DNA of 64,000 nucleotides, from assembly GCF_004959935.1 (NCBI RefSeq), contig NZ_SMYN01000001.1, positions 62,001 through 126,000 on the forward strand, in the 5' to 3' direction. Position 1 is the first letter of the stretch. Each line of letters opens with the position of its first letter. A model generated the notes under the pieces. That model did no database searches. It was not told where the DNA came from and saw only the letters and a program-made list of their open reading frames with translations. The position numbers and the translations under genes were made by a program. Of the stretch, positions 11,839-57,599 are shown in pieces. The DNA is from Falsirhodobacter xinxiangensis (lineage in GTDB: Bacteria > Pseudomonadota > Alphaproteobacteria > Rhodobacterales > Rhodobacteraceae).

Positions 11839-12739
11839 CCTGCTGCTGCTGGCCGCTTGCGGTCCGCTGGCCGACAGCCGGGCCAAGCGGATCGAAGCGC
11901 GAAACCCGCCCGAGGGCCGGATGGTCCGCGTCGCGGAGGCCGTGATCCACGCCGAAGTGCAGGGGAGCGGCCCCGACCTGGTGCTGATCCACGGCGCCAG
12001 CGGCAACACCCGCGACATGGCGGCACTGGCCGATGCGCTTCAGGACCGCTATCGCGTCATCAGTTTCGACCGCCCCGGTCAGGGATATTCCAGCGATCTC
12101 GGCGCCAAGGGCAATAGCCCAATGGTGCAGGCCGATTATCTGCGCGCTGCGGCGCGTCAGCTTGGCGTGCATGATCCCATCGTGCTTGGCCATTCCTATG
12201 GCGGCGCGGTCGCAATGGCCTGGGCGCTGATCGAGCCGGATACGCATGGCGTGGTGCTGGTGTCGGGCGCAGTGCTGCCATGGGAGGGGGGGCTTGACGG
12301 TGTCTACGGCCTTGCGGCGACCCCGTTGGGCGAGGCGACTTTGGAGCCGCTGGCCTCGGCTTTCCTGCCCGATTGGGCGCTGGACCGGATCGTCCGCACG
12401 CTGTTCGCGCCGCAGGACCCGCCCGATGGTTACGCCGAAGCCATCGCCGCCGATCTTGCCCTGCGGCCCCTGCCCCTGCGCACCAACCTGCGGCAATTGA
12501 CCCGCCTGAAGCCGCATCTGGCGCTGATGGCGAAGCATTACCGCGCCCTGACCCTGCCGATCGAGATCGTCCACGGCAGCGCCGACCAGACCGTATCGCC
12601 GCGCATCCAGTCGCTGCCGATGACCCAACTTCCGAATGTGCATCTGACGCTGCTGCCCGGTGTCGGCCACATGGCGCATCACGTCGCCACGGCCGATGTC
12701 GTGGCCGCCATTGACCGCGCCTCTGCCCGAGGGCGATAA
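11813..12739 (+). CDS. Alpha/beta hydrolase, predicted lipoprotein
   Basis: A 308-residue serine hydrolase of the alpha/beta fold. The nucleophile is Ser128 in GHSYGG, the oxyanion region is [11 protein letters not shown], and the likely acid and base are in HGSADQTV and GVGHMAHH near the C-terminus. The N-terminus looks like a lipoprotein signal with lipobox LLAAC, giving Cys16 as the acylated residue, so the enzyme is probably membrane-anchored in the periplasm. The start overlaps the end of metA by 26 bases, and the ATG is kept because it gives a complete signal peptide. The substrate is unknown; a role in methionine synthesis is not implied. Confidence 0.85.
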
Positions 12740-28523: not shown

Positions 28524-29723
28524 ATGAAAGCCAAGGACGCCCCTGACCTGAACCGTTTCGACTGGGAAGACCCTTTCCGGCTGGAGGATCAACTGTCCGA
28601 GGAGGAGCGGATGCTGCGGGATGCAGCCCGCTCCTATGCCCAAGGCAAGCTGCAACCCCGCGTGATCCGCGCCTATGCCACCGAGGAAACCGACCCGGAA
28701 ATCTTCCGCGAGATGGGCGCGATGGGCCTTCTGGGCGTCACCATCCCCGAGGAATATGGCGGGCTTGGCGCCAGCTATGTCGCCTATGGCCTGATCGCCC
28801 GCGAGGTGGAGCGGGTGGACAGCGGCTATCGGTCCATGATGTCGGTGCAGTCCAGTCTGGTGATGTATCCGATCTATGCCTACGGGTCGGAGGCGCAGCG
28901 GCGGAAGTATCTGCCGAAGCTGGCATCGGGCGAATGGATCGGCTGTTTCGGCCTGACGGAACCCGATGCCGGATCGGACCCGGCGGGGATGAAGACCACG
29001 GCGAAGAAGACCGCGAACGGCTATGTCCTGAACGGCGCGAAGACTTGGATTTCCAACGCCCCCATCGCGGATGTCTTCGTCATCTGGGCCAAGTCCGAGG
29101 CGCATGGCGGCAAGATCCGCGGCTTCGTTCTGGACAAGGGGATGCCCGGCCTGTCGGCGCCCAAGATAGGCGGCAAACTCTCGCTCCGCGCCTCGATCAC
29201 CGGCGAGGTGGTGATGCAGGATGTCGAGGTGCCCGAGGATGCGATGCTGGACATCGAAGGGTTGAAAGGCCCGTTCGGCTGTCTGAACCGTGCACGCTAT
29301 GGCATCTCGTGGGGGGTGATGGGCGCGGCGGAGTTCTGCCTTCACGCCGCGCGCCAATACGGGCTGGACCGCAAGCAATTCGGCAAGCCGCTGGCCCAGA
29401 CGCAGCTTCACCAGTTGAAACTGGCCAATATGCTGACCGAGATTTCGCTGGGCCTTCAAGCGTCGCTGCGCACGGGCCGTCTGATGGACGAGGCGCAGGC
29501 CGCGCCCGAAATGATCTCGATCATCAAACGCAACAACTGCGGCAAGGCGCTGGAGATCGCGCGCATGGCCCGTGACATGCATGGCGGCAACGGCATCTCC
29601 GAGGAGTTCCAGGTCATGCGCCACATGGTCAATCTGGAAACCGTGAACACCTATGAAGGTACGCATGACGTCCACGCGCTGATCCTTGGGCGGGCGATCA
29701 CGGGATTGCAGGCGTTCTTCTGA
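28524..29723 (+). CDS. gcdH: Glutaryl-CoA dehydrogenase
   Basis: FAD enzyme of 399 residues that oxidises and decarboxylates glutaryl-CoA to crotonyl-CoA in lysine and tryptophan breakdown. The C-terminal active-site stretch [20 protein letters not shown] matches the glutaryl-CoA dehydrogenase signature, with the catalytic glutamate in YEGTHD, and the ending is close to that of mitochondrial [16 protein letters not shown] is the acyl-CoA dehydrogenase FAD-domain motif. AGGAGG precedes the start. The stop shares one base with the start of the CoA-transferase gene. Confidence 0.94.
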
Positions 29724-30814
29724 TGACACCTCTGCATGGGCTGAAGGTGGTGGAACTGGCCCGCATCCTTGCGGGCCCGTGGATCGGGCAGACGCTGGCC
29801 GATCTGGGTGCCGACGTGGTGAAGATCGAGTCCCCCGAGGGCGACGACACCCGCACATGGGGACCGCCCTTCATCGAAGGGTCCGCCGCTTATTTCCATG
29901 CGGCAAACCGCGGCAAGCGCAGCATCGCCTGCGATTTCAACGACCCGGCGCAGTTGGCGCAGGTGGTCGATCTGATCCGCACCGCCGATGTGGTGGTAGA
30001 GAATTTCCGCCCCGGCGGCCTTGCGAAATACGGGTTGGATTACGAAACGCTCTCGGCGATCAACCCGCGCCTGGTTTACGCCTCGATCACCGGGTTCGGG
30101 CAGGATGGACCGTATGCCAGTCGTCCGGGTTACGATTTCCTGATCCAGGGCATGTGCGGCATCATGGACCTGACCGGCGATCCGGGGGGCGAACCGCAGA
30201 AGATCGGCGTCGCGTGGATCGACATTCTGACCGGGCTTTACGGCGTCATCGGAATACAAGCTGCGCTGGCGGAACGCGAACGCTCGGGGCTTGGGCAGCA
30301 GGTGGACCTTGCGCTGCTGGATTGCGGCGTGGCGGCTTTGGCAAATCAGGCGATGAACCATCTGGCGGGCAGGACGCCGACGCGGATGGGCAACGCACAT
30401 CCCAATATCGTGCCCTATCAGGTCTTCCCCGCCGCCGATGGCCACCTGATCGTCGCCTGCGGCAATGACCGACAATTCGCCGCCCTGTGCCGGGTGCTGG
30501 ACATGACTCCCGATCCTCGCTGGGCGACCAATCCCGGCCGGGTCGAAGATCGCGAGGCGCTGACCGCCCTTCTGGCCGCCCGAACAGCCCAGCGCCCCAA
30601 GGCCGACCTGATCGCCGCGATGGAAAGCGCAGGCATTCCCGCCGGCCCGATCAACACGGTGGCCGATGCGCTGGCGGACCCTCAGGTCATCGCGCGTGGG
30701 CTCCAGATCGCACCGGAGGGCATTCCCGGTCTGCGCACGCCTCTCAAATTCTCGCGCAGTCAGCTTTCGCTGGAACGTGCCGCCCCGTCGAAGCAGAACA
30801 TCGGCGAGGGGTAG
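29723..30814 (+). CDS. CaiB/BaiF-family (class III) CoA-transferase
   Basis: A 363-residue enzyme of the family III CoA-transferases. It has the N-terminal LKVVELARILAGPW motif, the nucleophilic aspartate region in YDFLIQGMCGIMDLTG, and the GIPAGPINTVADAL segment in the second half. Directly coupled to gcdH, it probably supplies glutaryl-CoA by moving CoA onto glutarate. The C-terminus (RAAPSKQNIGEG) is short and unlike usual family ends, and it abuts urease-gene debris on the other strand, so its last residues may derive from a deletion junction. Confidence 0.85.
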   Translation: MTPLHGLKVVELARILAGPWIGQTLADLGADVVKIESPEGDDTRTWGPPFIEGSAAYFHAANRGKRSIACDFNDPAQLAQVVDLIRTADVVVENFRPGGLAKYGLDYETLSAINPRLVYASITGFGQDGPYASRPGYDFLIQGMCGIMDLTGDPGGEPQKIGVAWIDILTGLYGVIGIQAALAERERSGLGQQVDLALLDCGVAALANQAMNHLAGRTPTRMGNAHPNIVPYQVFPAADGHLIVACGNDRQFAALCRVLDMTPDPRWATNPGRVEDREALTALLAARTAQRPKADLIAAMESAGIPAGPINTVADALADPQVIARGLQIAPEGIPGLRTPLKFSRSQLSLERAAPSKQNIGEG

Positions 30815-31069
30815 ATCGGCCATCGTCTCGCAAGTCCCGCGCAGCTCGTAAACTTCGGGGTTCGCAGCGGGAGTCATTCAGGACGATGTCCACCTTGCCG
30901 ATGCCACGTCGCCTTGTGGACCAACCCGTCTCACGAAGCAAAAGAGGTCCAAACAGCCCACGCCGCCGCAGACCTCCACCGCTTGCCCACAGGTGGCCGG
31001 GTCGCGCTCATCAGGTCGCTATCGACAAAGCGGATGCGGTCGGGCTGAACATGGCGGCATAGCTGGCAT
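30815..31069 (-). pseudogene. ureC: Remnant of ureC (urease alpha subunit), ends only
   Basis: Two fragments of ureC remain on the minus strand. At the 5' end ASYAAMFSPT (to about 31038) matches the start of UreC, then after a frame change RIRFVDSDLM (31038-31009) matches the next block; about ten bases equivalent to the TGD codons are missing. At the 3' end GKVDIVLND (about 30904-30872) matches the C-terminal VGKADMVLND block, then after another frame change NPEVYELRGTCETMADLPLA matches the family's final block up to LPMA. The roughly 1.5 kb between, including the nickel ligands, is gone. It cannot encode urease. Confidence 0.8.
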
Positions 31070-31088
31070 AGTAAATGCTAGCCCTCGG

Positions 31089-31364
31089 CTATCTCTTGAG
31101 GGCGGCCTTGGTCAGGCGCGCGGCATTGGCGCGGGTCTTGGCGCGCACCGGCTTCAGCGCGGCGGCATAGGGAGAGCGTCCGGTCATCATCGCTAGCCAC
31201 GCTGCCTGCTGCGCGGCCATCGCGGCGGCGAATTTCTCGGTCACCATGCGGGTGTTCTCGGTCGGTGCGGGGCGGCAGATGCCCGCCATGCCCATCATGC
31301 GCAGGGCGATGACCTGCTGGGCTTCCACCATCATCATCGCCGTCTGGAACCACGGATTCATCAT
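31089..31364 (-). CDS. Small conserved protein from the urease operon
   Basis: A 91-residue alanine- and methionine-rich protein (MMNPWFQTAMMMVEAQQVIALR), helical and without signal peptide. Similar proteins are often labelled antifreeze-like or hypothetical in Rhodobacteraceae. GGGAG lies before the start, which overlaps the stop of the ureB remnant. It is intact although the genes on both sides are broken. The position between ureB and ureC suggests it was part of the urease operon, but its role is unknown; the helical pattern with QQ and MM pairs recalls phasin-like proteins only loosely. Confidence 0.7.
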   Translation of the reverse strand: MMNPWFQTAMMMVEAQQVIALRMMGMAGICRPAPTENTRMVTEKFAAAMAAQQAAWLAMMTGRSPYAAALKPVRAKTRANAARLTKAALKR

Positions 31365-31450
31365 AGCGCTCCCATAACCTTGCCGTTGAAACCCCATAGC
31401 TGCCGGGTGCCGCGATGGGTCACCAGCGTCACTTCTCGCGAAATCCCATC
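31361..31450 (-). pseudogene. ureB: 3' remnant of ureB (urease beta subunit)
   Basis: The last 29 codons and stop of a ureB gene: REVTLV, then HRGTRQLWGF, then NGKVMGAL, which align with the UreB C-terminal pattern RxVxLV-x2-GGxRxVxGFxxxVMGxL. Nothing upstream in frame matches the rest of UreB securely, and no ureA precedes it. The stop TGA overlaps the ATG of the small conserved gene, as expected if the original operon order is preserved. Confidence 0.75.
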
Positions 31451-31528
31451 GCCTCGGGGTGGCTCAGCCTGACACCGCAAGGCCATCGCTGCAACGAAAA
31501 CCGGCACCTGTCCCTTTCGCCCAGCGGC

Positions 31529-32338
31529 TCATATCTGCCAGACGCGCGGCAGCGACCTGCCCCGCATCGCGTTCAGCACCTTCGCCACCTGACGGCGCAA
31601 CGGCCAGCCATCATGCGAAAGCATCCGCACCACCAGCGTGCCGTCGAACGCCGAGGCGGTCGCCTCCACCCCAAGGATGTCCAGCGCACCGCGTGCCACG
31701 GCAAGCGTCTCCTCCGCGCCCGGCCCGACCATGGCCAGCGTCGCAAAGGCGCGCGCGCCGCCCGGAACCGCCGCGCTCGCCTCGTCGCCGAAAGACAGCG
31801 GATCGGTCAGAACCGGCACACCGTCGCGCAGCACGCTTCGGCGGTCGGTGAAGGCCAGCCGTCCCACCGTTTCGCCCATGGCGGCGCGGCCCAGCACGAC
31901 CATCTCCAGCAAGAGGCACCCTGCGCGGCCTGTCAGCGCGATCTCGGTGCTGCGCGTGACGGACGATCCGTCGTAAAGGATCGTTTCCTGTGGCAGCCAA
32001 TCCAGCCAGCCACCCTGCCCGACGCTGTGGCGAATGGTGACGACGGCTTCGGAACCGCCGGAGTCATAGGCGCGCTCGGCCGTCTGGGTCGTGGCGACCG
32101 CTTGGCAGCCGTCGTCCAGAGCCAGCGAAAGATCCAGCCTGTCACCGCCGGTCAAACCGCCCGAGGTATTCAGAAAGACGACCTCGGGCGTGCCGACGCC
32201 GCGGGGAAGGATGGCCTTGGCCGATCCCTGCTGGCACAGATCGGCCAGCCGGGTCGTGCCGGATTGAAGTTTCATGCGGACATGCGCCTCGCCACGGCTG
32301 CGCTCCAGCCGGCGAAGGGACGATGGGGGGAAATTCAT
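31529..32338 (-). CDS. ureD: Urease accessory protein UreD, now without its operon
   Basis: A 269-residue protein of the UreD/UreH family, the scaffold that binds apo-urease and UreF-UreG during nickel insertion. Family blocks are clear: LNTSGGLTGGDRLDL near residue 56, TTQTAERAYDS, WLPQETILYDGS and DPLSFGD. Length and both ends look normal and no frame break is seen. But the genes it should serve are absent or broken immediately downstream, so it is probably functionless here unless a second urease operon exists elsewhere. It is divergent from the TetR gene of the efflux operon. Confidence 0.92.
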   Translation of the reverse strand: MNFPPSSLRRLERSRGEAHVRMKLQSGTTRLADLCQQGSAKAILPRGVGTPEVVFLNTSGGLTGGDRLDLSLALDDGCQAVATTQTAERAYDSGGSEAVVTIRHSVGQGGWLDWLPQETILYDGSSVTRSTEIALTGRAGCLLLEMVVLGRAAMGETVGRLAFTDRRSVLRDGVPVLTDPLSFGDEASAAVPGGARAFATLAMVGPGAEETLAVARGALDILGVEATASAFDGTLVVRMLSHDGWPLRRQVAKVLNAMRGRSLPRVWQI

Positions 32339-32462: not shown

Positions 32463-32478
32463 GAATGAACGTTCATTC
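32463..32478. promoter_or_regulatory. Perfect 16-bp palindrome over the TetR start codon
   Basis: GAATGAACGTTCATTC is a perfect palindrome of a type often bound by TetR proteins that control RND pumps. The ATG of the TetR gene (32465-32467) lies inside it. Repressor bound here would block both the promoter and the start region of its own operon. The binding assignment is inferred. Confidence 0.65.
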
Positions 32479-33070
32479 TCAATCCGATTGCAACTGCCCC
32501 ACCGATCTTCGCGTCCCGGAAATCCTTCGCGCCATCCGCCACATCTTCATCGAAAAAGGCTTCGACGGCGCGTCCATGCAGGATCTTGCGCGCGGGTCTG
32601 GGATGAGCGCAGGCAATTTCTATCGTTATTTTCGATCCAAAAATGCCATTATCGAGGCGATGGTCGCGCATGATCTGGGCGAATTCCGCGACGATTTTGC
32701 CCGGATCATGACCGCGGACGACCCGATGGCGGAACTGCGCACCACGATCGCGCGGCACCTGACCGCGCAGGATCAGGGCGCCCTTTGGGCCGAGATCAAC
32801 GCAGCCGCCCTGCGAAAGCCCGAGATCGCGGCGCTCTGCACCGGGATGGAGGCTTGGATCACCGACCGGTTGATCGAGATCTTCGCCCATGTCGCGCATC
32901 TTTCCGAAGATGCCGCGCGGGCGCGCTTTACTGCGCATGCGGGTGTCGTGGTCATGTCGGTCAAGGCCACCGCCATCAGCCGCGCGGCCGCCACGCGCGC
33001 CGATGTGGATGCCTTGATGCTGCGAATGATCGAAGGACTTCTGGACGAGGTGAGCCACCATGCGGATTGA
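32465..33070 (+). CDS. TetR-family regulator of the adjacent RND pump
   Basis: A 201-residue repressor. The N-terminal helix-turn-helix is clear (DLARGSGMSAGNFYRYFRSK, about 40-59) and the C-terminal half forms the ligand-binding core. The start ATG lies inside a perfect palindrome; almost no leader or ribosome-binding site is visible, so the message may be leaderless or the start may differ slightly. It overlaps the membrane-fusion gene by 11 bases. Control of the efflux operon is the natural reading. Confidence 0.88.
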   Translation: MNVHSQSDCNCPTDLRVPEILRAIRHIFIEKGFDGASMQDLARGSGMSAGNFYRYFRSKNAIIEAMVAHDLGEFRDDFARIMTADDPMAELRTTIARHLTAQDQGALWAEINAAALRKPEIAALCTGMEAWITDRLIEIFAHVAHLSEDAARARFTAHAGVVVMSVKATAISRAAATRADVDALMLRMIEGLLDEVSHHAD

Positions 33071-38488: not shown

Positions 38489-40336
38489 ATGAAGACATCC
38501 CTGACCGCCATCCTTGCCGCGCTGGCCGCCCCCGCCGCCGCACAGGACATCCTTCTGCCCCCCATCGTCGTCAGCGCCGGGCTGGAGCCGGTCGCAAGGG
38601 ATCGCACCGGCGCGGACGTGACCGTCATCACCGGGCCAGAGATCGAGCGCAGCGGTGACACGCGCCTGATCGACGTGCTGGGCCGCGCGGCGGGCATCTC
38701 GATCCGCAGCACCGGCCCGATGGGCACCACTGCGGGCCTGACGCTGCGCGGGGTGCCGCAGACCGGCGTCGCCGTTCGGATCGACGGGATCGACGTGGCG
38801 GACCCCTCGAACACGCAGGTCGCCTTCGACTTCGGTGCGCTGACCACGCCCGGCATCGGACGGGTGGAGATCCTGCGGGGCGCGCAATCGGCGCTCTATG
38901 GCTCGGAAGCCGTGGGCGGCGTCATAGACATCCGCACCCACCGCAGGGCCGAAGACGGGATCGAACAGCGGGCAGCGGTGGAATATGGCAGCTTCGCCAC
39001 CGCAAAGCTCAGCTATGGCTTCGCGGCGAAATCCGGGCCGTCCGACCTCGCGATGACGCTGTCGCACATCCGCAGCGACGGCTATTCCGCTGCCGACGAC
39101 ACCCCCGCCACCCCAAACCCCGAGGATGACGGGTTCGAAGCAACGCGCCTGTTCTTCGCGGGCGGGCATGAGGTTGGGGCGGGAAGGCTGGAAGTGTCGG
39201 GCTTCGTCGAACGCTCGCGTTCAGAACTGGACGAATTCGGCCCCACCGACGGCACCCCGGACGAACGAGGCCATGCCACTACCCGCGGTATGAGACTGGC
39301 CTATTCGTTCTCGATCGGCGTGGTGGACAATACGCTCGAATATGCGTTCTTCGACAACGATCGTCAGCTGCGGGGAACATATGATTACGAAGGAGTGCAA
39401 TATCCTTCGAATCAGGATTATGTCGGTCGCCGCAACAAAATAGGTTACCTTGGCGGCGTCGATCTGAGCACGGGGCGATTGACGTTCGGGGCTGATCGGA
39501 CCAAGGAGTCCTATTTCGTCGACAGCGGAACACCAGACGGTCACGACGACGCGACGAACGGCGTTTATGCCGAATACAGTATCCCATTAACCCCGGGTTT
39601 TGACTTTTCTCTGTCGGTGCGGCGCGATCACCATTCTCGTTTTGGCGCATATAAAACCGGCCGCATTTCCGCGATATGGCGTCCGACCGAAAATACCATC
39701 ATTCGCGCCAATGCCGGAAGCGGCTTCCGCGCGCCATCGGGTTACGAGCTATATGCTCCCGCTTACGACCCCATCTCTCCCGCGCCGGGAAATCCTGACC
39801 TTGGACCGGAGAAAAGCCGCACCTACGATCTTGGCATTGAACACCGCGTCGGCGCTGCGACCCTTGGGGCCACCCTGTTCCGCGCCGACATCCAAGACAT
39901 GATCGACTATTCCTTCGCCACCTCCACCTACATCCAGCGCGCTGGCGATGCCCGGCGTCAGGGGATCGAGCTTTCTGCCACTTATGATGTGAGCAAAGCA
40001 GTGGTGACGGGCAACTACACCTATTCCGACGCGCGGTCGGATTCGCAGCTGGACAGTTCCGCATGGCAGGCGACGACGCCGCGCCACATGCTGAACCTTA
40101 TCCTCGCCGGCGATCTCGCGCAGGGCTGGTCGGGCGAGGTCGCGCTGCAACATGCGGCGGACCGCGAGGGGCTGGACGATTTCACAGTGGCGGACGCGAC
40201 GCTGACCCGCGATTTCGGCAACGGAACCGAAGCCTATCTGCGGGTCGAAAACCTTTTCGACGAGGATTACCAGCTGGTGCGCGGATACGGCACTGCCGAA
40301 CGCTCGGCCTATCTGGGCGTCCGTCGCACGTGGTAA
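38489..40336 (+). CDS. btuB: TonB-dependent vitamin B12 receptor
   Basis: A 615-residue outer-membrane receptor that takes up cobalamin using TonB energy. It has a signal peptide of about 18 residues (AALAAPAAAQ), a TonB-box-like IVVSAG just after, a plug domain (about 25-150, with GRVEILRGAQSALYGSEAVG) and a barrel ending in the conserved YLGVRRTW. The cobalamin riboswitch before it identifies the substrate. Part of the barrel-coding sequence near 39350-39720 is visibly lower in G+C than its surroundings. It overlaps the permease gene by seven bases. Confidence 0.93.
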   Translation: MKTSLTAILAALAAPAAAQDILLPPIVVSAGLEPVARDRTGADVTVITGPEIERSGDTRLIDVLGRAAGISIRSTGPMGTTAGLTLRGVPQTGVAVRIDGIDVADPSNTQVAFDFGALTTPGIGRVEILRGAQSALYGSEAVGGVIDIRTHRRAEDGIEQRAAVEYGSFATAKLSYGFAAKSGPSDLAMTLSHIRSDGYSAADDTPATPNPEDDGFEATRLFFAGGHEVGAGRLEVSGFVERSRSELDEFGPTDGTPDERGHATTRGMRLAYSFSIGVVDNTLEYAFFDNDRQLRGTYDYEGVQYPSNQDYVGRRNKIGYLGGVDLSTGRLTFGADRTKESYFVDSGTPDGHDDATNGVYAEYSIPLTPGFDFSLSVRRDHHSRFGAYKTGRISAIWRPTENTIIRANAGSGFRAPSGYELYAPAYDPISPAPGNPDLGPEKSRTYDLGIEHRVGAATLGATLFRADIQDMIDYSFATSTYIQRAGDARRQGIELSATYDVSKAVVTGNYTYSDARSDSQLDSSAWQATTPRHMLNLILAGDLAQGWSGEVALQHAADREGLDDFTVADATLTRDFGNGTEAYLRVENLFDEDYQLVRGYGTAERSAYLGVRRTW

Positions 40337-41304
40337 GATCGCTGATCCCCGTCGTTGCGGTGCTGTTTCTGGCATCGCTGCTGATCGGCCCGGCGGGGAT
40401 CGGGCTGCGCGAGGCTCTGCTTGCGCTTGGGTCGGGGCAAGGCGGGGATATTGCGCTGATCATGCGGGAGATCCGGCTGCCGCGGGCTCTTCTGGGCGTG
40501 ATGGTCGGCGGATCGCTTGGCTTGGCGGGGGCGGCGATGCAGGGTTGGCTGCGCAACCCGCTGGCGGAGCCGGGGCTGATCGGGGCGTCGTCCTCGGCGG
40601 CGTTGGGCGCGGTGGTGGCGCTGCAATCGGGGCTGGCGGCGGCTTTTGCGCTGGCTTTGCCGCTGATGGCGCTGGGCGGGGCGCTTGGCTCGGTCCTGCT
40701 GATCGCGGCGTTGGCGGGGCCGCGGGGTTCGGCGGTCGTGCTGATTTTGGCGGGGGTTGCGGTGTCGGCCATCGGGGCGGCGCTGACCTCGCTGCTGCTC
40801 AGCCTGTCGCCAAACCCATATGCCGTGGCCGAGATCGTGTTCTGGATGATGGGATCGCTGGCGGATCGTTCGATGGTCCATGTCTGGCTGGCACTGCCGG
40901 TGATGGCCTTTGGCGCGGCGCTGCTGGCGACGACCGGGCGGGGGCTCGATGCGCTGACGCTGGGCGAGGATGCCGCCGCCACGATGGGCATTCCGATGCG
41001 GCGGTTGCGGGTCTGCCTGATCCTTGGGACGGCATCGGTCGTGGGGGCGGCGACGGCGGTGGCGGGCGCGGTCGGCTTCGTCGGGCTGGTGGTGCCGCAT
41101 CTGCTGCGGCACTGGGTGCAGGGGGTGCCGTCGCGGCTGCTTCCGGCCTCGGCGCTGGGCGGGGCGGCGATGGTGTTGGCCGCCGACATCGCGGTGCGGC
41201 TGATCGCGCCCGACCGCGATCTGAAGCTGGGAGTGCTGACGGCGCTGGTCGGGGCGCCGCTGTTTCTGCACCTGATCTGGAAGATGCGGAGGGGCGAGGC
41301 ATGA
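40330..41304 (+). CDS. btuC: Vitamin B12 ABC transporter permease (FecCD family)
   Basis: A 324-residue permease with about ten predicted membrane segments of the FecCD/BtuC type. Family blocks include GGSLGLAGAAMQGWLRNPLA near residue 60 and GFVGLVVPHLLRHW, which carries the docking helix. The start is GTG at 40330, inside the end of btuB. It is a cobalamin permease by context, as it follows btuB under the same riboswitch. Its end overlaps the ATPase gene by four bases. Confidence 0.9.
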   Translation: MVRSLIPVVAVLFLASLLIGPAGIGLREALLALGSGQGGDIALIMREIRLPRALLGVMVGGSLGLAGAAMQGWLRNPLAEPGLIGASSSAALGAVVALQSGLAAAFALALPLMALGGALGSVLLIAALAGPRGSAVVLILAGVAVSAIGAALTSLLLSLSPNPYAVAEIVFWMMGSLADRSMVHVWLALPVMAFGAALLATTGRGLDALTLGEDAAATMGIPMRRLRVCLILGTASVVGAATAVAGAVGFVGLVVPHLLRHWVQGVPSRLLPASALGGAAMVLAADIAVRLIAPDRDLKLGVLTALVGAPLFLHLIWKMRRGEA

Positions 41305-41975
41305 TGTCCATCGACCTTTCCGTGCCGGACCGCCTTCAGGCCACGCTGACCGTCGCGCAGGGCGAATTCGTCGGCCTCGTCGGGCCGAACGGCGCAGGCA
41401 AGACGACGCTTCTGCGCGCATCGCTTGGGCTTTTGCCTGCCACGGGGCGGCGCGATCTGGCGAAGGCCGCTTTCCTGCCGCAGATGCGCGAGATCGCCTG
41501 GCCGATGCCGGTGGAGCGGATCGTCGGACTTGGCGGCGCGGGTCCGGCGGCGGTGGACCGCGCCATCGCGCGGATGGAGCTTCAGCCCCTGCGTCATCGC
41601 CGCGCCGATGCGCTGTCGGGTGGCGAGCAGGCCCGCGTGCTGATCGCCCGCGCCTTGGCGCAGGAGGTGCCGCTGCTGCTGGCGGACGAGCCTATCGCCG
41701 GCCTCGACCCTGCCGCCCAGATCGCCGCGATGGAGGTTTTCACCGCCAAAGCGCAGGCGGGCGCGGTCGTCGCCTCGATCCACGATCTGGGGCTGGCGGC
41801 GCGGTTCTGCACACGGCTGGTGGTGCTTTGCGGCGGGCGGATCGTGGCGGACGGGCCGCCTTCGGTGCTGACGCCCGATCTGCTGGCAGGCGTCTTCGGT
41901 ATTCGCGCATGGTTCCGCGACACCGAGGAAGGCCCGGTCTTCCAACCTCTTTCCCGCGTGGCTACTCTGCCCTGA
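41301..41975 (+). CDS. btuD: Vitamin B12 ABC transporter ATPase
   Basis: A 224-residue ATPase, short for the family. Walker A is GPNGAGKTT (about 28-36), the signature is LSGGEQARVLIARAL and Walker B is LLLADEPIAGLD. The H-loop histidine is in SIHDLG. It starts at one of two adjacent ATGs (41301 or 41304). Together with btuB and btuC it makes the importer, but the periplasmic binding protein BtuF is not in the window. Confidence 0.9.
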   Translation: MMSIDLSVPDRLQATLTVAQGEFVGLVGPNGAGKTTLLRASLGLLPATGRRDLAKAAFLPQMREIAWPMPVERIVGLGGAGPAAVDRAIARMELQPLRHRRADALSGGEQARVLIARALAQEVPLLLADEPIAGLDPAAQIAAMEVFTAKAQAGAVVASIHDLGLAARFCTRLVVLCGGRIVADGPPSVLTPDLLAGVFGIRAWFRDTEEGPVFQPLSRVATLP

Positions 41976-41989
41976 AACGGGAGGGGCGG

Positions 41990-43207
41990 ATGGACGAACG
42001 GGCATTTCTGGAACGGGTCTTCAGGGCGGGGATCGCGGCGGCGGACCCGGCGCAGGTGCTGGTACGGCATCTGCCCGAACGTCCCAAGGACCGGGTGGTC
42101 GTGGTCGGTGCGGGCAAGGCCGCCGCGTCGATGGCCCGCGCGGTGGAGGCGGCATGGCCCGATGCCACCGGCGTGGTCGTCACCCGCGACGGACATTCCT
42201 GCGAAACGTCGGGGATCGAGGTGCTGGAAGCCTCGCATCCCGTTCCCGATGAACGATCCGAAGCGGCAGCGCGGCGGATGCTGGATGCCGTGCGGGGGCT
42301 TGGGCCGGACGATCTGGTGCTGGTGCTGATCTCGGGCGGGGGGTCGTCGTTGATGGCGCTGCCTGCCGAGGGGCTGACGCTGGCCGAGAAACAGGCGGTG
42401 AATCGGCAGCTTCTGGCCTCGGGGCTGGGGATCGGCGACATGAACCGGGTGCGGCGCAGATTGTCGGGGATCAAGGGCGGCAAGCTGGCGCTGGCCGCCG
42501 CGCCGGCGCGGGTGGTGACGCTGGCGATTTCCGACGTGCCGGGGGACGATCCGCGGGCCATCGCCTCGGGCCCGACCGTGTTCGATCCAGAGGCTTCGGC
42601 GGACCTGTCGGCGCTGGTGGACCGCCTGCCGGATCTGCCCGAAGCGGCGCGCCGCCTGTTGCTGGCGACGCCTGCGCCCGTGCAACCGTTCGAGGCCGAT
42701 TACCGCATGATCGCAACGCCCATGATGGCGCTGGAGGCCGCCGCGCAGGTCGCGCGGGAGGCAGGTGTCACGCCCCTGATCCTCGGCGACGCGCTGGAGG
42801 GCGAATCCGCCGCGCTGGGCCAGATGATGGCGGGCGTCGCGCGGTCGGTTCTGGATCACGGCCATCCCCTGCCCCGTCCCGCCTTGATCCTGTCGGGGGG
42901 CGAGACGACCGTGACCATCGGCGCTGGCAAGCCGGGGCGCGGCGGGCGGAATACCGAGTTCCTGCTTTCGCTGGCGCTGGCGAGGCTGCCGATCTTTGCG
43001 CTGGCGGGCGATACGGATGGCATCGACGGGACCGAGGATGCGGCGGGCGCGATCGTGACGCCGGACACCCTGACACGCGCGCCGGATGCCGCGCGCGCGC
43101 TGGCGGCGCATGACAGCTATAGCCTGTTCGCGCGGCTGGGCGATCTGGTCATCACGGGGCCAACCCTGACGAATGTGAACGATTTGCGCGCGATATTGGT
43201 CACATAA
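41990..43207 (+). CDS. Glycerate 2-kinase (MOFRL/GckA family)
   Basis: A 405-residue enzyme that phosphorylates D-glycerate, linking glyoxylate, serine or tartrate metabolism to glycolysis. Family blocks are VVVGAGKAAASMA near residue 36, LISGGGSSLMALP near 117 and the C-terminal MOFRL motif region GRNTEFLLSLAL. Older annotations call such proteins hydroxypyruvate reductase (TtuD). GGGAGGGG lies before the ATG. It is 14 bases after btuD and may be part of that transcript, though its function is unrelated to B12. Confidence 0.9.
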   Translation: MDERAFLERVFRAGIAAADPAQVLVRHLPERPKDRVVVVGAGKAAASMARAVEAAWPDATGVVVTRDGHSCETSGIEVLEASHPVPDERSEAAARRMLDAVRGLGPDDLVLVLISGGGSSLMALPAEGLTLAEKQAVNRQLLASGLGIGDMNRVRRRLSGIKGGKLALAAAPARVVTLAISDVPGDDPRAIASGPTVFDPEASADLSALVDRLPDLPEAARRLLLATPAPVQPFEADYRMIATPMMALEAAAQVAREAGVTPLILGDALEGESAALGQMMAGVARSVLDHGHPLPRPALILSGGETTVTIGAGKPGRGGRNTEFLLSLALARLPIFALAGDTDGIDGTEDAAGAIVTPDTLTRAPDAARALAAHDSYSLFARLGDLVITGPTLTNVNDLRAILVT

Positions 43208-43280
43208 ACGATACGAAACCTTCAACTGCGCGACATGAGGGGTCGGTAACGCGTCGGTCAACCACTCCAGAGGGACTGAC

Positions 43281-44582
43281 ATGAAAACCACGGCCTCCAT
43301 CGCGCTTCTGGCGCTCGGCTTCTCCTCGGTCACGGCGACCGCGCAATCGACCGGCATCACCTGGTGGCACGGCATGGGCGGCGCCAACGCCGAGGTCATC
43401 AACCAGCTTTCGACCAAGTTCAACGAATCCCAGTCGGAATGCGCGATCACCCCGGTGTCGAAAGGCACCTATGAGGAGGCGCTGGCCTCTGGCATCGCGG
43501 CGTTCCGTTCGGGCGAACAGCCGAACATCCTGCAAGTGTTCGATGCAGGCGCTGCCACGATCATCAACGCCCCCGGCGCCGTCATCCCGGCCGAGGATCT
43601 GATCGTCGGCGCGGGCCACGAGTTCAACCGCGATGCCTTCATCGAAGGCGTGCGCTATTTCTATGCCGACAGCGAAGGCAAGTTCGTGGGGATGCCGTTC
43701 AACTCCTCGGCGCCGATCATGTATATCAATACCGAAGCGTTCGAGAAGGCCGGCGTCGCCGCGCCGAAGACGTGGGAAGAATTCGAAGCCGCCGCCCCCG
43801 CGCTGAAAGAGGCGGGCTATATCCCGATGACCGCCAGCCAGCTGACCTGGCAGTTCACCGAGAACTTCTTCTCGCGTCACAACATCCAGTTCGCGACGAA
43901 CAACAATGGGTATGACTCGGTCGAGGGGACCGAGATGAACCTGACCGATCCGAACCTGATCCACATGTTCGAAAAGCTGGCCGAATGGAAAGACGCGGGC
44001 CTGTTCGCCTATTACGGCGCGGGCTGGGCGGACAACCAGACCCCGTTCGAACAGGGCAAGGTGGCAATGTGGATCGGATCGTCGGGGTCGTTCGGCGGGT
44101 TGCAGAAGACGGCGACGATGCCCTTCTCGGCCACCTTCCTGCCCTACTGGGCCTCGGTCGAAGGTGCTGGCACCAACACCTTCATCGGCGGCGCGGCCCT
44201 GTTCGCCATGTCGGGCAAGTCGGATGCGGAAAACGCCTGCACGGCCTCGTTCTTCCAGTTCCTGACCTCGCCCGAGATCCAGAAGTTCTATCACCAGGCT
44301 ACCGGCTATGTCGCCATCACCGAAGCCGCCTACGAGCTGGCGAAATCGGAAGGCTACTATGAAGAACAGCCGGTTGCCGAGGTTGGCATCCAGCAGCTGA
44401 TGCTGCCGTCGGGCGACTGGTCGAAAGGCTACCGTCTGGGCTTCTATCCGCAGATCCGTTCGATCATGGAACGCGAATACAACCGTATCTTCGCGGGTGA
44501 GACGACCGTTCAGGAAGCGTTCGAGACGATCAAGACCGAAGGCGACGCGCTGCTGGCACGTTTCGCACAGACCGCAGGCTGA
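43281..44582 (+). CDS. ugpB: Glycerol-3-phosphate ABC transporter binding protein
   Basis: Periplasmic binding protein of 433 residues, the first gene of a ugpBAEC operon. It has a signal peptide of about 21 residues ending ATAQS, then ITWWHGMGG, the usual start of mature UgpB. The stretch VGMPFNSSAPIMYINTEAFE and the C-terminal GSSGSFGGLQ are family blocks. It feeds glycerol-3-phosphate or glycerophosphodiesters to UgpAE. A hairpin with no T run separates it from ugpA. Confidence 0.93.
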   Translation: MKTTASIALLALGFSSVTATAQSTGITWWHGMGGANAEVINQLSTKFNESQSECAITPVSKGTYEEALASGIAAFRSGEQPNILQVFDAGAATIINAPGAVIPAEDLIVGAGHEFNRDAFIEGVRYFYADSEGKFVGMPFNSSAPIMYINTEAFEKAGVAAPKTWEEFEAAAPALKEAGYIPMTASQLTWQFTENFFSRHNIQFATNNNGYDSVEGTEMNLTDPNLIHMFEKLAEWKDAGLFAYYGAGWADNQTPFEQGKVAMWIGSSGSFGGLQKTATMPFSATFLPYWASVEGAGTNTFIGGAALFAMSGKSDAENACTASFFQFLTSPEIQKFYHQATGYVAITEAAYELAKSEGYYEEQPVAEVGIQQLMLPSGDWSKGYRLGFYPQIRSIMEREYNRIFAGETTVQEAFETIKTEGDALLARFAQTAG

Positions 44583-44602
44583 TCCTTTTAAGGCACTGAC
44601 TT

Positions 44603-44626
44603 CGGGCCCTCCCTCGCGGGGGCCCG
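44603..44626 (+). terminator. Hairpin between ugpB and ugpA
   Basis: CGGGCCC (44603-44609) and GGGCCCG (44620-44626) form a perfect seven-base stem with a ten-base loop and no T run. It probably stabilises the upstream ugpB message, giving excess binding protein, as in other solute importers. Confidence 0.55.
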
Positions 44627-44647
44627 TCCCTATTGATGGAGGGATCG

Positions 44648-45571
44648 TTGACCGCAATTTCCGCAAAACCGAAGGTGCAGGCAGAGCCGGCCAAACGGGT
44701 GCAGTTCGACAATGCGCTGCTGCCGTGGCTGTTCCTGCTGCCGCAGCTGGCGGTGATCGTCGTCTTCTTCTATTGGCCGTCGGTGCAGGCGGTTCAATCG
44801 TCCTTCTTCATCGAAGACCCGTTCGGCTTCGGATCGACATTCGTGGGCATGGCGAATTATGCCGACGCATTGGCCAGCCGCGAATACCGCCGCATCGCAA
44901 GCTTCACCGCGGTGTTCACCGTTCTGGTCACGTTCCTTTCGCTGGCGATCGGCCTGCTGCTTGCCGTCAAGGCCGATGCGGTGATCCGGGGGGCCAGCGC
45001 CTACAAGACGCTGCTGATCTCGGTCTATGCCATCGCGCCGCCGGTGGCGGGGTTGATCGGGATGATGTTCTTCGACATGCATATCGGCCCCTTCGTGCAG
45101 ATGGCCGCGTGGTTCGGCTGGAACATGCAGGTGGGGCTGAACTATTTCGACACCGCCTTCGCGATGGTCTTCGTGTCGGTGTGGAAGCAGATCCCGTATA
45201 ACTTCATCTTCTTTTTGTCCGGCCTTCAAGCCGTGCCGGTTTCGGTGCGCGAGGCGGCCTTCATCGACTGCAAGAACGGCTGGCGCAGGTTCCGCACCGT
45301 GACGCTGCCGCTGCTGATGCCGACGGCGTTCTTTCTGCTGATCATCAACATCACCTACGCCCTGTTCGATACGTTCGGGATCATCGACGTGATGGTGAAG
45401 GACAAGCCCGCGAACAACCCGATCACGCTGGTCTACAAGGTCTATAACGACGGGTTCCGCGGCAACGATCTGGGCGGATCGTCGGCGCAGTCGGTGATCT
45501 TGATGGTCGTCGTCTTCGCGCTGACCATCGTGCAATTCCGCTTCCTTGAAAAACGCATCCATTACGGTTGA
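44648..45571 (+). CDS. ugpA: Glycerol-3-phosphate ABC transporter permease UgpA
   Basis: A 307-residue permease with six predicted membrane segments. The EAA loop region reads REAAFIDCKNGWRRFRTVTL. I place the start at TTG 44648 because GGAGGG lies six bases upstream. The ATG at 44636 is in frame and would add four residues, but it would put that ribosome-binding site inside the gene. Both choices give a working protein. Confidence 0.9.
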   Translation: MTAISAKPKVQAEPAKRVQFDNALLPWLFLLPQLAVIVVFFYWPSVQAVQSSFFIEDPFGFGSTFVGMANYADALASREYRRIASFTAVFTVLVTFLSLAIGLLLAVKADAVIRGASAYKTLLISVYAIAPPVAGLIGMMFFDMHIGPFVQMAAWFGWNMQVGLNYFDTAFAMVFVSVWKQIPYNFIFFLSGLQAVPVSVREAAFIDCKNGWRRFRTVTLPLLMPTAFFLLIINITYALFDTFGIIDVMVKDKPANNPITLVYKVYNDGFRGNDLGGSSAQSVILMVVVFALTIVQFRFLEKRIHYG

Positions 45572-45575
45572 GGCC

Positions 45576-46418
45576 ATGCATCGCACCCGACCCTTCGACC
45601 ACCTGATCCTGATCATCGGCGCGGCGCTTCTGGTGCTGCCGGTGGTCGTGGCCTTCATGACCTCCACCTATACCGCCGCGCAGATTCACACGGGCGGGCT
45701 TCAGATCCTTCCGGGCGGCAACTTCACCGAGACTTACTCCAAGGTGCTGACCCAGAAGGGCGGCTTCACGGGGCAGATCACCGGTGCGCGAATGCTCATG
45801 AACTCGATGATCCTTGGCATCGGTTTCGCGCTGGGCAAGATCGTGCTGTCGATGATGGCGGCCTATGCCATCGTCTATTTCCGCTTCCGCTTCGCCACGA
45901 TCATGTTCTGGGTGATCTTCACCACCCTGCTGCTGCCGCTGGAGGTTCGGATCATGCCGTCCTATGGCGTGATGTCGCAACTGGGGCTTTTGAACAGTTA
46001 TACCGGGCTGATTGTGCCGCTTCTGGCCTCGGCCACGGGCACCTTCTATTTCCGGCAGTTCTTCAAATCCATTCCCGACGAGCTGCTGGAGGCCGCGCGG
46101 ATCGACGGCGCGGGACCGTTCAAGTTCCTCATCGACGTGATCGTGCCGCTGTCGAAGACGATGATCGCCGCGATCTTCATCATCATGTTCGTCTATGGCT
46201 GGAACCAGTATCTGTGGCCGATGCTGATGACGACGGACGAGTCGTTCTTCACCCTGATGCGCGGCATCAAGTCGATCCTGCAGGTCTGGATCGGATCGCA
46301 AATCCCCGACTACAACGAGGCCTTCGCTTTGGCCGTGCTGGCGATCATCCCCCCCGTCGCGGTGGTGGTGATCTTCCAGCGCTGGTTCATCAAGGGCCTG
46401 ACAGAAAGCGACAAGTGA
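45576..46418 (+). CDS. ugpE: Glycerol-3-phosphate ABC transporter permease UgpE
   Basis: A 280-residue permease with six predicted membrane segments. The EAA loop is [20 protein letters not shown]. It begins four bases after ugpA and ends two bases before ugpC. The family-typical [20 protein letters not shown] precedes the fourth segment. Confidence 0.93.
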
Positions 46419-46419
46419 C

Positions 46420-47484
46420 ATGGCATCCATTGCAATCGAAAACGTGGTGAAAACCTATGCCGGTGGCAACACCGCCGTGCACGGGGTCAGCATCGACATT
46501 AAGGATGGCGAGTTCATCGTGTTGGTTGGCCCCTCGGGTTGCGGGAAATCCACGCTGCTTCGCATGGTCGCGGGGCTGGAGTCGATCTCGGGCGGGGATG
46601 TGCGGATCGGGGATCGCAAGGTGAACGATCTGGACCCCGCCGACCGCGACATCGCGATGGTGTTCCAGAACTACGCCTTGTATCCGCACATGACGGTTCG
46701 CGAAAACCTCGCTTACGGCCTGAAGAACCGCAAGACGCCGAAGGCCGAGATCGAGGCGCGGGTGGCCGAGGCCGCCCGGATGCTGGAGATCGGGCAGTAT
46801 CTGGACCGCAAGCCTCGCGCGTTGTCGGGCGGACAGCGGCAGCGCGTCGCGATGGGCCGCGCCATCGTCCGCAAGCCCGCCGCATTCCTGTTCGACGAGC
46901 CGCTGTCGAACCTCGACGCCAAGCTGCGGGTGACGATGCGGGCCGAGATCCGCAAGCTTCAGAAGCGGCTTGGCACCACGTCGATCTATGTCACCCACGA
47001 CCAGTTGGAGGCGATGACGCTGGCGGACCGTCTGGTGGTTCTGAACGCGGGGCGGATCGAGCAGATCGGCGCACCGCTGGAGATTTATCACAAGCCCGCA
47101 TCGACCTTCGTTGCCAGCTTCATCGGGTCCCCGGCGATGAACCTTGTCGATGCGCGGGTCGAAGGTGGGATGCTCTGGTTCGGCGGGGTTTCGGTGCCGC
47201 TGGCAGGCGCGCAGGGTCCGGTCACGCTTGGTCTTCGGGCCGAGGATCTGCGCCTCGCCGCCCCGGGCGAAGCCGCCGTGCAACTGCGGATCGAGCATGT
47301 GGAGGAGTTGGGCGCCCAGCGGCTGGTGCATGGCATGGTCGAAGATCAGTCCCTGACCATCGCACTGTCGCCCGACATCCCGCTGACCGATACGCTGCCT
47401 ATCGCCCTGCCCCGCGAAAGGCTGCATCTGTTCGACGCAGTCAGCGGCAAGCGGATCGAGACCCGCGTGCCGGCCTTCGCCTAG
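46420..47484 (+). CDS. ugpC: Glycerol-3-phosphate ABC transporter ATPase
   Basis: A 354-residue ATPase of the MalK/UgpC type. Walker A is GPSGCGKST (about 37-45), the signature is [15 protein letters not shown], Walker B is [11 protein letters not shown] and the H-loop is THDQLEAMT. The C-terminal TOBE domain (about 235-350) is present. Its stop overlaps the opposing c-di-GMP gene by four bases. The phosphodiesterase gene ugpQ is not adjacent. Confidence 0.95.
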
Positions 47485-49913
47485 GCCACCTTGCCGGGGC
47501 TGAAAAGCTCCGGCAGCAGTTCCGGCGCGGTGGGGCGGCCAAGCAGGAAGCCCTGCGCCTCGTCGCAGCCTTCGCTTTGCAACAGGGCAAGCTGGGCCAT
47601 CGTCTCGACCCCCTCGGCCAGAACCGGCACTTCGAGGCTGCGGCCAAGGGCGAGGATCGCGCGGATGATGGCCTTCGCCTGCTTGCTCGTCTCGACCTCG
47701 CGCATGAAGGATCGGTCCAGCTTGATCTTGTCGAAGGGGAAGGCGCGAAGCGTATCCAGCGAAGAATATCCCGTGCCGAAATCGTCGATGGCGATGGTCA
47801 CGCCCAGATCCTTGATCTGGCGCAGCGCATGCAGGGCGCGGGCCTTGTCGGCGATGATCGCGCTCTCGGTCACTTCCAGCTCCAGCCGCCAAGGGGCAAG
47901 CCCGGTTTCGGCCAGCACATCGCGCAACATTTCGACCAGCGCGCCATTGCCAAGCTGCACGGGCGACAGGTTCACCGCGATGCGGAAATCGGCGGGCCAG
48001 CTCGCGGCCTCGCGGCAGGCGGTGCGCAGCACCCATTCGCCGATGGGAAGGATCGCGCCGCATTCCTCGGCCAGCGGGATGAACTCTGCCGGAGAGACGG
48101 GCCCGCGCTGCGGATGGTTCCAGCGCAACAGCACCTCGTATCCCGTGGTGGTTCCCGTGCTGACGGATTTCTGGATCTGGTAATGCAGGTGCAGTTCGTT
48201 GCGGTCGATGGCCTGCCACAGATCGCGCGCCAGCGTTCGACGCTCGCGCGCCACCTCGTCCATCTCGGCCTCGTAGAAGCAAGTGTTCTCGGACAGCGAG
48301 CCCTTGGCGCGATACATTGCCATGTCGGCATTCGCGATCAGCTTTTCTGCGCTGCCCGCATCACCCGGAAAGATGGCGACGCCGATGCTTGCCCCGACCG
48401 ACACGTCGTTCCCCTCGATCAGCATTCGGGCCGAGATCGCCTGATCCAACCGTTTGATGAAGCCGTGCAGGTCGGCATCGTGGCGGAATTCGATGAAGGC
48501 CGCGAATTCGTCTCCGCCGAAACGCGCGACGAACTCGCCCGATTGAAGCGCCCCGGCCATGCGTTCTGCCGCCAGCCGCAGCACGGCATCGCCCACCGAA
48601 TGACCAAGGTGATCGTTGATCTCCTTGAAGCGGTCGAGGTCGATGCCCAGCACCGCCACCCGGTTCCCTTCGGCCGTCGCCGTATCGAGCGCCCATGCGA
48701 TGTTGTCCGAGAAGCTGGCCCGGTTGGGCAGCCCCGTCAGCGTATCGTGCCGCGCCATATGGACGATCTGCTCCTCGGACCGGCGGCGTTCCGAGATGTC
48801 TTCATAGGTGGACACCCAGCCCCCATCCGGCACCGGGCGATGGACCACGCGGATCGTGCGGCCGTCGCGCATGTCCTGCACGATCTCGGCCTCGTGGCGC
48901 AGGGACCACAGGTTGCGATGCGCCGTCAGAAAATCCTCGATGCCGTCGCCGCCCAGATCGGCGCGATGGGCCATCTCTCGGGCGACATCCTCTTGCGTCG
49001 GATGGGGCGCGGACAGGCCCACGATCTCTCGCAGCCGGTCGTTCGCGATCAGCAGCCTGCCCCCGGCATCGAACAGTGCGAGGCCCTGGCTCATATTGCC
49101 CAGCGCCAGTTCGAGGTTGCGGCGCAATGCCGCGAGCCGTTCGGCATCCTCGCGCTTGCGGGTGTCGTCATGGGTGATCTTGGCAAATCCCAGATGGGCG
49201 CCGTCATCGCCATGGATCGGCTCCACCAGCACCGAGGCCCAGAATCGACTGCCATCCTTGCGATACCGCCAGCCTTCGGCCTGAAACTTGCCCTGCCGCA
49301 GCGCGGTTTCCAGCGCCCGTTCGGGCAGGCGCGCCAGCCGATCCTCGGCCGAGAAGAAGCGCGAGAAATTCTCGCCGACGATCTCCTCGGCGGTGTATCC
49401 CTTGTTGCGCTCCGCCCCGGCGTTCCAGTTGGCGACGTTGCCCGACGGATCGAGCATGTAGATGGCATAGTCCGTCACGCTTTGGATCAGCAGGCGCAGG
49501 CGGCGTTCCCCTTCGACCGCGTGGCGCAGCGACAGCTCTGCCGCAAGCATATTGGCCGGATCGCGCAGGATCAGCACCTCGGTCCGCCAACCCGCAGGGC
49601 GCAGCGCCGCATCCACCGGGCGCGGGCCGACATCGGGGCGTTCCAGCTCCAGCCGGACCACCTGCCCCTGCGCCGCGCGCAGCCGTGCCATCATGCCGGG
49701 GTTCAAATCGCGCCAGCGCCGCCCTGCAAGATCGTGAAAGACCCGGTTGCCCGCAACGGTGCGCCCCATGACGACAAGCGCAAGCCCCTCGGTCGACAGG
49801 TCGGCCATCCGCGCCTTGCGCCATGCCCCCAAGGCGACCGTTCCGGTCGCGAACATGGCGGCAAGCGCGCCGAATGCTTCTGGATTTTGTGCGATGGACA
49901 AAAGAGCAGGCAT
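47481..49913 (-). CDS. PAS-PAS-GGDEF-EAL c-di-GMP protein
   Basis: An 810-residue signalling protein. It has an N-terminal hydrophobic segment (about 12-32), then two PAS domains (about 135-255 and 270-385), a GGDEF domain (about 395-555) and an EAL domain (about 565-805). The cyclase motif is intact as RFGGDEF, with no clear RxxD inhibition site seen. The EAL domain has EVL in GYEVLLRW in place of EAL, but keeps the key acidic stretch [10 protein letters not shown], the lysine in KLDRSF and AEGVET. It could make and break c-di-GMP in response to a PAS signal. It lies next to polysaccharide locus B. Confidence 0.92.
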
Positions 49914-50011
49914 GATGTTCCCGGTTGCGCGTTCAGCCGCGACATTCGGGATCAGGTGATGAAGGAGCTGTTTATTCCCTCATCACCCCATGCCTGAAAA
50001 TATCTAAACTT

Positions 50012-50716
50012 TTATTTGCCCGTGGCGTTCACGACCGAAAAGCCGGTCAGGAAAATCAGGCGCAGGTCCAGCGCGAAGGTCATCTCGCGCTCGTATCGCA
50101 CGTCAAGCTGCACGCGGTCGTCATAAGACAGCGCATTGCGCCCGGTGGCCTGCCACAACCCGGTCACGCCCGGACGCACGCATTTATAGGACGCCGCGTG
50201 CTTGCCATAGCGCAGAAGCTCGTCCGGGACGACCGGACGCGGGCCGACGATGCTCATCTCGCCCCGGAAGACGTTCCAAAGCTGGGGCAATTCGTCCAAG
50301 CTGGATTTGCGCAGGAAACGGCCCAGCGGCGTGATGCGCGGATCGTTGTCCAGCTTCTGATGTTCGGCCCATTCGGCGGCGGCGGCCTCATCCTCGCGCA
50401 GCAGCTTCTGCAGCCGCGCTTCGGCATCCATCACCATCGACCGGATCTTGACGCAGCGGAATATCCGCCCGTCGCGCCCGACCCGCTGCTGAAGGAAGAA
50501 CGGGTTGCCCCCGTCCAACGCGACCATCGCCGCAAACAGCGCCACCACCGGCGCGATCAACGGCAGAAGCAGCAGGCAAAGAGCAAGATCGAAGATGCGC
50601 TTGCCGATTTCACGATAGGAAAATTTCCGTACCGATCCGGGCAAAAGGGCCTCGGTGGTGTCCACACGCGACACTTCTTGCGCGGACGTAACGGATGGCT
50701 CGTCAAGGACGGTCAT
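50012..50716 (-). CDS. Initiating sugar transferase, ExoY/WcaJ type
   Basis: A 234-residue polyisoprenyl-phosphate hexose-1-phosphate transferase that starts repeat-unit assembly on undecaprenyl phosphate. It has an N-terminal membrane segment ([20 protein letters not shown], about 44-63). Catalytic blocks are [30 protein letters not shown] and GPRP, and the conserved C-terminal RPGVTGLWQ. It is the natural first enzyme of polysaccharide locus B. The sugar (galactose or glucose) cannot be decided from sequence. Confidence 0.93.
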
Positions 50717-50845
50717 TCGGACACCCTGAAAACTGGTAAATACACTTTAACTTTTCTTAGACACAGGCCGCACAAAGTCAACTAGGGCCAAACAATTATT
50801 CGCAGGTGCAGCGATTAATCGCGCGATGCCAAATCCATTCAAATC

Positions 50846-50864
50846 GGAGATTGGCATAATCTCC
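50846..50864 (-). terminator. Hairpin between two minus-strand polysaccharide genes
   Basis: GGAGATT (50846-50852) and AATCTCC (50858-50864) form a perfect seven-base stem with a five-base loop. It lies just after the stop of the glycosyltransferase gene at 50877. No T run follows, so termination is uncertain. Confidence 0.4.
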
Positions 50865-50876
50865 TGATATCAATGG

Positions 50877-54218: not shown

Positions 54219-54219
54219 A

Positions 54220-57598: not shown

Positions 57599-57599
57599 C

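What the first reader, a model, noticed from the sequence alone, without database searches (positions are those of the whole stretch)
30803..32338. A urease operon collapsed by internal deletions
Reading the minus strand, ureD is complete, then come only the last 29 codons of ureB, an intact small gene, and frameshifted scraps of both ends of ureC. ureA, most of ureB, about 1.5 kb of ureC and any ureE, ureF and ureG are absent. The order ureD-(ureA)-ureB-small gene-ureC is the order seen in related bacteria, so this looks like decay in place rather than insertion of stray pieces. It indicates recent loss of urease in this lineage.
Basis: partly seen in the sequence, partly recalled or inferred. 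Interest (0 to 1): 0.75.

Follow-up and report, generated by a model that had tools for sequence, protein, structure and literature searches.

The report
Wreck of a redundant urease operon
One of this bacterium's two sets of urea-splitting enzyme genes has fallen apart, but a complete set remains elsewhere in the genome, so it seems to have swapped ureases rather than lost the enzyme.

Summary
The degenerate operon is real. The nearest genome held (Falsirhodobacter flavus, same genus) has complete ureD-ureA-ureB-small gene-ureC at the same site, so this is decay in place by two large and several small deletions. The conclusion "loss of urease" is wrong at gene level: the same genome carries a complete urea-transporter, ureDABC and ureEFG cluster on another contig. 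That cluster is closer to a more distant congener (84%) than its transporter is to F. flavus (80%), although this genome and F. flavus are 86-90% alike around the window: probably a horizontally acquired replacement. Its ureC, however, groups firmly with F. flavus ureC, so it is a mosaic. ureD and the small gene at the wreck still look constrained, while the ureA/B/C scraps have drifted for a good part of the time since the split, so the decay is not very recent. Replacement of one operon by another is an ordinary process. The mildly unusual part is the retention of ureD and the small gene, perhaps serving the surviving enzyme in trans (untested).

The parts
31529..32338 (-). ureD, intact (269 aa)
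   Evidence: Pfam PF01774 156.2 bits; 91.4% aa identity to G001 UreD, dN/dS 0.125
31446..31527 (-). remnant of the 5' part of ureA, with small indels
   Evidence: collinear DNA alignment with G001 ureA; protein score alone not above shuffles
31364..31447 (-). last 28 codons of ureB
   Evidence: tblastn 51.6 bits, E 1.3e-14, shuffle maximum 26.2
31089..31364 (-). intact small gene (91 aa, weakly phasin-like) between the ureB and ureC remnants
   Evidence: open frame; 96.7% aa identity to the G001 gene over 90 residues; dN/dS 0.070; NCBIfam NF045536 24.2 bits, cut-off 100
30962..31085 (-). 5' remnant of ureC with two 10-base deletions
   Evidence: alignment with G001, C67 and other ureC
30803..30908 (-). 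3' remnant of ureC, in broken frame, running into the 3' end of the convergent CoA-transferase gene
   Evidence: tblastn 30.0 and 27.7 bits v shuffle maximum 25.8; alignment
29723..30814 (+). flank: CaiB-type CoA-transferase gene, marker of the orthologous site
   Evidence: Pfam PF02515 411.3 bits; 93.7% aa identity to G001
32465..33070 (+). flank: TetR-type regulator gene, marker of the orthologous site
   Evidence: Pfam TetR_N 56.1 bits; 92.5% aa identity to G001

Best explanation
The window holds the wreck of the lineage's original urease operon (ureD-ureA-ureB-small gene-ureC). The lineage acquired a second cluster (urea-type transporter, ureDABC and convergent ureEFG, now on contig C67), probably by horizontal transfer and shared with the lineage of a congener. 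The original became redundant and lost ureA, ureB and ureC through two large and several small deletions. Recombination left the C67 cluster and the F. flavus operon with ureC genes of one type. Urease genes were therefore kept. Shown: the remnants, the intact operon at the same site in F. flavus, the intact C67 cluster, the conflicting ureD and ureC trees. Inferred: horizontal origin, redundancy as the cause, and expression and activity of the C67 enzyme.
For: Remnants and intact ortholog at the same site. On C67: UreC with a 568-codon open frame and the catalytic motif strings, UreB, UreD, UreE, UreF, UreG and five transporter genes. G001's only UreB match is the one at the orthologous site, its only UreC match likewise. 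C67 is 84-85% identical to G005 over the cluster, but only 80% to G001 over the transporter and 78% over ureEFG, while this genome and G001 are 86-90% alike in the two flanking alignments and 89% over a further 19 kb, where the three longest G005 matches are 69-72%. ureD tree: C67 with G005 and G004, the window copy with G001, both 100/100; forcing C67 with the window copy and G001 rejected (AU p 2.9e-5). ureC tree: C67 with G001, 100/100; forcing C67 with G004 and G005 rejected (AU p 0.0007). Two-against-two sites: ureD 11 for G001 against 48 for G005 or G004, ureC 67 against 33.
Against: Order of events is not dated: the second cluster could have arrived after the first began to decay. Direction of the ureC exchange is unresolved: where C67 and G001 differ, the window ureC scraps agree with G001 7 times and C67 3 times in the 5' piece, but 6 and 10 times in the 3' piece. 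Within ureC a few windows favour G004, so the tract is not clean. Not all of this genome is far from its congeners: G004 matches about 4 kb of window 40000-59000 at 82-83%, so a raised identity to one congener is not unique to C67. The AU groups were named after the identities were seen. G002 was left out of the ureD tree (only a 282-base piece was found). The draft assembly (80 contigs) could hide a chimera at C67.
Confidence: 0.65

Rival explanations
1. Reciprocal loss: the common ancestor of this genome and F. flavus already had both operons and exchanged ureC between them; F. flavus then lost the transporter-linked ureDABC and this lineage lost the other.
For: ureC divergence between C67 and G001 (dS 0.389) equals that of the orthologous ureD pair (dS 0.391), as expected if ureC was shared before the split. 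G001 keeps transporter genes next to the ureEFG match at C11:1055798-1063402, with no ureDABC match between them.
Against: The transporter genes of this genome are closer to G005 than to G001 (84% v 80%), which shared vertical descent does not predict.
Confidence: 0.28
2. Loss of urease from the lineage by recent decay.
For: ureA, ureB and ureC at this site are destroyed.
Against: Complete urease genes on C67.
Confidence: 0.04
3. Assembly or sequencing artefact: the operon is intact and the draft sequence is wrong here.
For: The genome is a draft in 80 contigs.
Against: The site lies inside a 414 kb contig that is collinear with G001 on both sides; besides the gaps the scraps differ from G001 at 38 of 260 codon position 1+2 sites, more than sequencing errors would give. 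The UreB family has one match in this genome. The UreC family has one strong match, plus one of 22.7 bits on C16 (23.1 with its neighbours, cut-off 23) that was not followed up.
Confidence: 0.03

Closest known systems
Falsirhodobacter flavus (basonym Cereibacter flavus) SYSU M79828 urease operon
   Same: same site, same gene order, same flanking TetR and CoA-transferase genes
   Different: complete there, and its UreB and UreC are the only matches in that genome
Brucella ure-1 and ure-2 (PMC2492869; passages read)
   Same: two urease clusters in one alphaproteobacterial genome, one of which its authors think possibly came by horizontal transfer
   Different: the passages name ureB2 and ureC2 genes in the second cluster; here one cluster is reduced to ureD, a small gene and scraps
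Plasmid-borne urea transporter of Falsirhodobacter algicola, NZ_CP047291.1
   Same: five urt genes, 82.5% identical to the C67 ones over the matched 49% of the query
   Different: in F. algicola (G004) ureDABC and ureEFG matches lie apart from the transporter; no plasmid among 69 with a match covers 80% of the C67 cluster in one place

Membership tests
Degenerate (pseudogene) urease operon | collinear remnants of the structural genes | tested here: met
Degenerate (pseudogene) urease operon | intact counterpart at the orthologous site of a relative | tested here: met
   G001
Degenerate (pseudogene) urease operon | all genes of the operon freed from selection | tested here: not met
   ureD and the small gene keep dN/dS 0.125 and 0.070 against G001; so only the ureABC part is called degenerate
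UreD accessory protein | Pfam PF01774 above cut-off | tested here: met
   156.2 bits, cut-off 27; no NCBIfam model matched at E 0.001
UreD accessory protein | helps nickel insertion into urease | not testable with these tools
   needs an assay
Phasin PhaP6 (NF045536), for the small gene | score above curated cut-off | tested here: not met
   24.2 bits, cut-off 100; no Pfam family
Horizontally acquired replacement cluster (C67) | gene trees and identities at odds with genome relatedness | tested here: met
   transporter, ureEFG and ureD; but ureC follows the genome relatedness, and ureA is ambiguous (8 sites against 5 and 4)
Horizontally acquired replacement cluster (C67) | mobile-element borders or a plasmid replicon | not tested
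   the borders (L065 7190-7441 and 18006-18141) were not examined

The most novel reading that the evidence does not exclude
The cell runs a hybrid urease drawn from two operons: the surviving cluster's UreC is of the original operon's type, and the orphan UreD and small protein in the wreck are kept by selection because they still serve that UreC in trans.
Probability: 0.22. Interest if true: 0.5.

Novelty: new member of a known kind. Interest (0 to 1): 0.3.

Why it matters
It looks like one metabolic operon being replaced by another, caught with the old copy still legible, the new copy recombined in its catalytic gene, and two genes of the old copy still under constraint. It also warns against calling a metabolic loss from one degenerate locus without looking at the rest of the genome.

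Tried and rejected
Rejected: loss of urease from the genome. Rejected: chance similarity of the ureB and ureC 3' scraps (200 shuffles); the ureA scrap and the ureC 5' pieces do not pass that test singly. Inconclusive: using the window ureC scraps to tell the direction of the ureC exchange. Weak: comparing the CoA-transferase across the genus to find an empty site; of 7 genomes only G001 has a close match besides the own one (94%; next best 50% in G002), so the other five say nothing about this site. Literature: the listings of searches (titles and starts of abstracts) showed no paper on this locus or on urease gene exchange in Falsirhodobacter; only the passages were read. A Fisher test used 12 gap blocks, some of them end gaps; counted by eye on the alignments the internal ones are 9 (ureA 4, ureB 0, ureC 5' 2, ureC 3' 3), retested.

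Simplifications: the simulation uses one neutral rate (0.195 per site, half of the ureD dS) and one transition bias. Absence of stops alone is weak (probability 0.14 if ureD were neutral for 0.6 of the branch); the count of amino-acid changes carries the argument. The figure 0.6 is my own rough arithmetic from the excess at codon positions 1+2, not a tool result, and the four scraps differ among themselves (0.107 to 0.210). The names urtABCDE come from the annotation of the matching F. algicola plasmid.

Full report
Observation. On the minus strand of 30803-32338 the window holds a complete ureD (Pfam UreD), an 82-base scrap of ureA, the last 28 codons of ureB, an intact small gene, and both ends of ureC. 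The ureB and ureC 3' scraps beat all 200 shuffles (51.6 v 26.2 bits; 30.0 and 27.7 v 25.8 bits); the ureA scrap (22.3 v 24.6) and the ureC 5' pieces (at most 23.1) do not singly, and rest on collinear DNA alignment.

Relative. The nearest of the genomes searched, G001, is collinear with the window (86.1% and 89.6% over the two flanking alignments; 89% over a further 19 kb). Its contig of 1158270 bases matches the record of Cereibacter flavus SYSU M79828, which PMC11092380 (passages read) moves to Falsirhodobacter as F. flavus. At the same place it has complete ureD, ureA, ureB, small gene and ureC, between the same TetR and CoA-transferase genes. Against it the window lacks about 0.43 kb from within ureA to within ureB and about 1.4 kb of ureC, with smaller gaps besides. 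The 126-base space between TetR and ureD has kept its length (78.2% identity).

Gene order. The search with the window UreD kept the best 80 of 108 loci (G001's is one of them). 79 of 80 have ureD, ureA, ureB and ureC in that order (the other, L148, shows no ureC in the stretch held) and 18 of 80 have the small gene between ureB and ureC. It is weakly phasin-like, far under the curated cut-off, and no Pfam family matched it. In 61 genomes it has matches in 17; within the genus only in this genome and G001 (2 of 7), once each. G002, G004 and G005, which have UreB and UreC, lack a match to it, so urease in the genus does not in general go with it.

The rest of the genome. The same genome has a UreC with a 568-codon open frame, UreB, UreD, UreE, UreF, a UreG-type GTPase and five transporter genes on contig C67; the transporter is of the urea type by its match to annotated urtABCDE. 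So urease is not lost at gene level. A second match to the UreC family on C16 (22.7 bits, 23.1 with its neighbours, cut-off 23) was not followed up. In the genus, 5 of 7 genomes match UreB and 5 of 7 match UreC.

Origin of the C67 cluster. It is 84-85% identical to G005 throughout; over the transporter 81% to G004 and 80% to G001 and G003; over ureEFG 82% to G004 and 78% to G001. In window 40000-59000 G001 is 89% and the three longest G005 matches are 69-72%; G004 matches there range from 71% to 82-83%, the latter over about 4 kb, so high identity to a congener occurs elsewhere too. Acquisition shared with the G005 lineage is the simplest reading. The ureD tree (16 rows; G002 left out, only a 282-base piece found) puts C67 with G005 and G004 and the window copy with G001, each at 100/100; the ureC tree (16 rows) puts C67 with G001 at 100/100; the alternatives tested were rejected by the AU test (p 2.9e-5 for ureD; 0.0007 and 3e-43 for ureC; groups named after the identities were seen). 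Two-against-two sites agree: ureD 11 for G001 against 26 for G005 and 22 for G004; ureA 8 against 5 and 4; ureB 4 against 7 and 3; ureC 67 against 17 and 16, with a few ureC windows nearer to G004. So the C67 cluster is a mosaic. Which operon gave its ureC to which is open.

Constraint. Against G001, dN/dS is 0.125 for the window ureD and 0.070 for the small gene, beside 0.054-0.139 for five flanking genes. Codon positions 1+2 differ at 38 of 260 sites in the scraps and 27 of 538 in ureD (Fisher p 1.1e-5; without the ureA piece 32 of 208, p 1.2e-5). Internal gap blocks: 9 in 390 aligned bases of scrap, 1 (15 bases, in frame) in 1077 of ureD plus small gene (p 4.7e-5). By parsimony with seven outgroups the window ureD has 11 amino-acid changes and G001 2 (p 0.022), with 24 and 22 silent ones and 28 ambiguous: some relaxation, but simulated neutral drift for 0.6 of the branch gives a median of 58 changes and none of 1000 runs under 39. 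So ureD was kept while ureABC drifted; alternatively it has been free only for a short last part of the branch.

Mechanism. Most likely: a second, horizontally acquired cluster made the first redundant; the structural genes of the first decayed; ureD and the small gene stayed. Whether they serve the surviving enzyme in trans is untested, and the small gene's absence in other urease-bearing congeners speaks against its being needed for urease. UreD is an accessory protein of nickel insertion (established knowledge; PMC10121161 and PMC3792862 seen in a search listing only).

Verdict. Interest is modest.

Noticed in passing
L065 13201-16342 (G000:C67): The intact urease cluster of the same genome is a mosaic: ureD groups with G005/G004, ureB leans that way, ureC groups with G001.
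   Followed up: yes
L058 about 11830-12388, and the corresponding gap in L059: G005 and G004 have an extra stretch of about 0.55 kb between ureA and ureB; in G005 its translation looks HupE/UreJ-like (recalled; a HupE/UreJ gene is annotated in a plasmid urease cluster, NZ_CP067141.1). C67 and G001 lack it.
   Followed up: partly
window 31089-31364: Small gene between ureB and ureC in 18 of 80 related loci, without a Pfam family; a single copy in this genome, kept after the operon died.
   Followed up: partly
L057 10346-10378: In F. flavus the convergent ureC and CoA-transferase genes overlap by 33 bases at their 3' ends.
   Followed up: no
G000:C16:26329-26445: Weak match (22.7 bits, 23.1 with neighbours, cut-off 23) to the urease alpha N-terminal family with a TGA inside; perhaps another amidohydrolase.
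   Followed up: no
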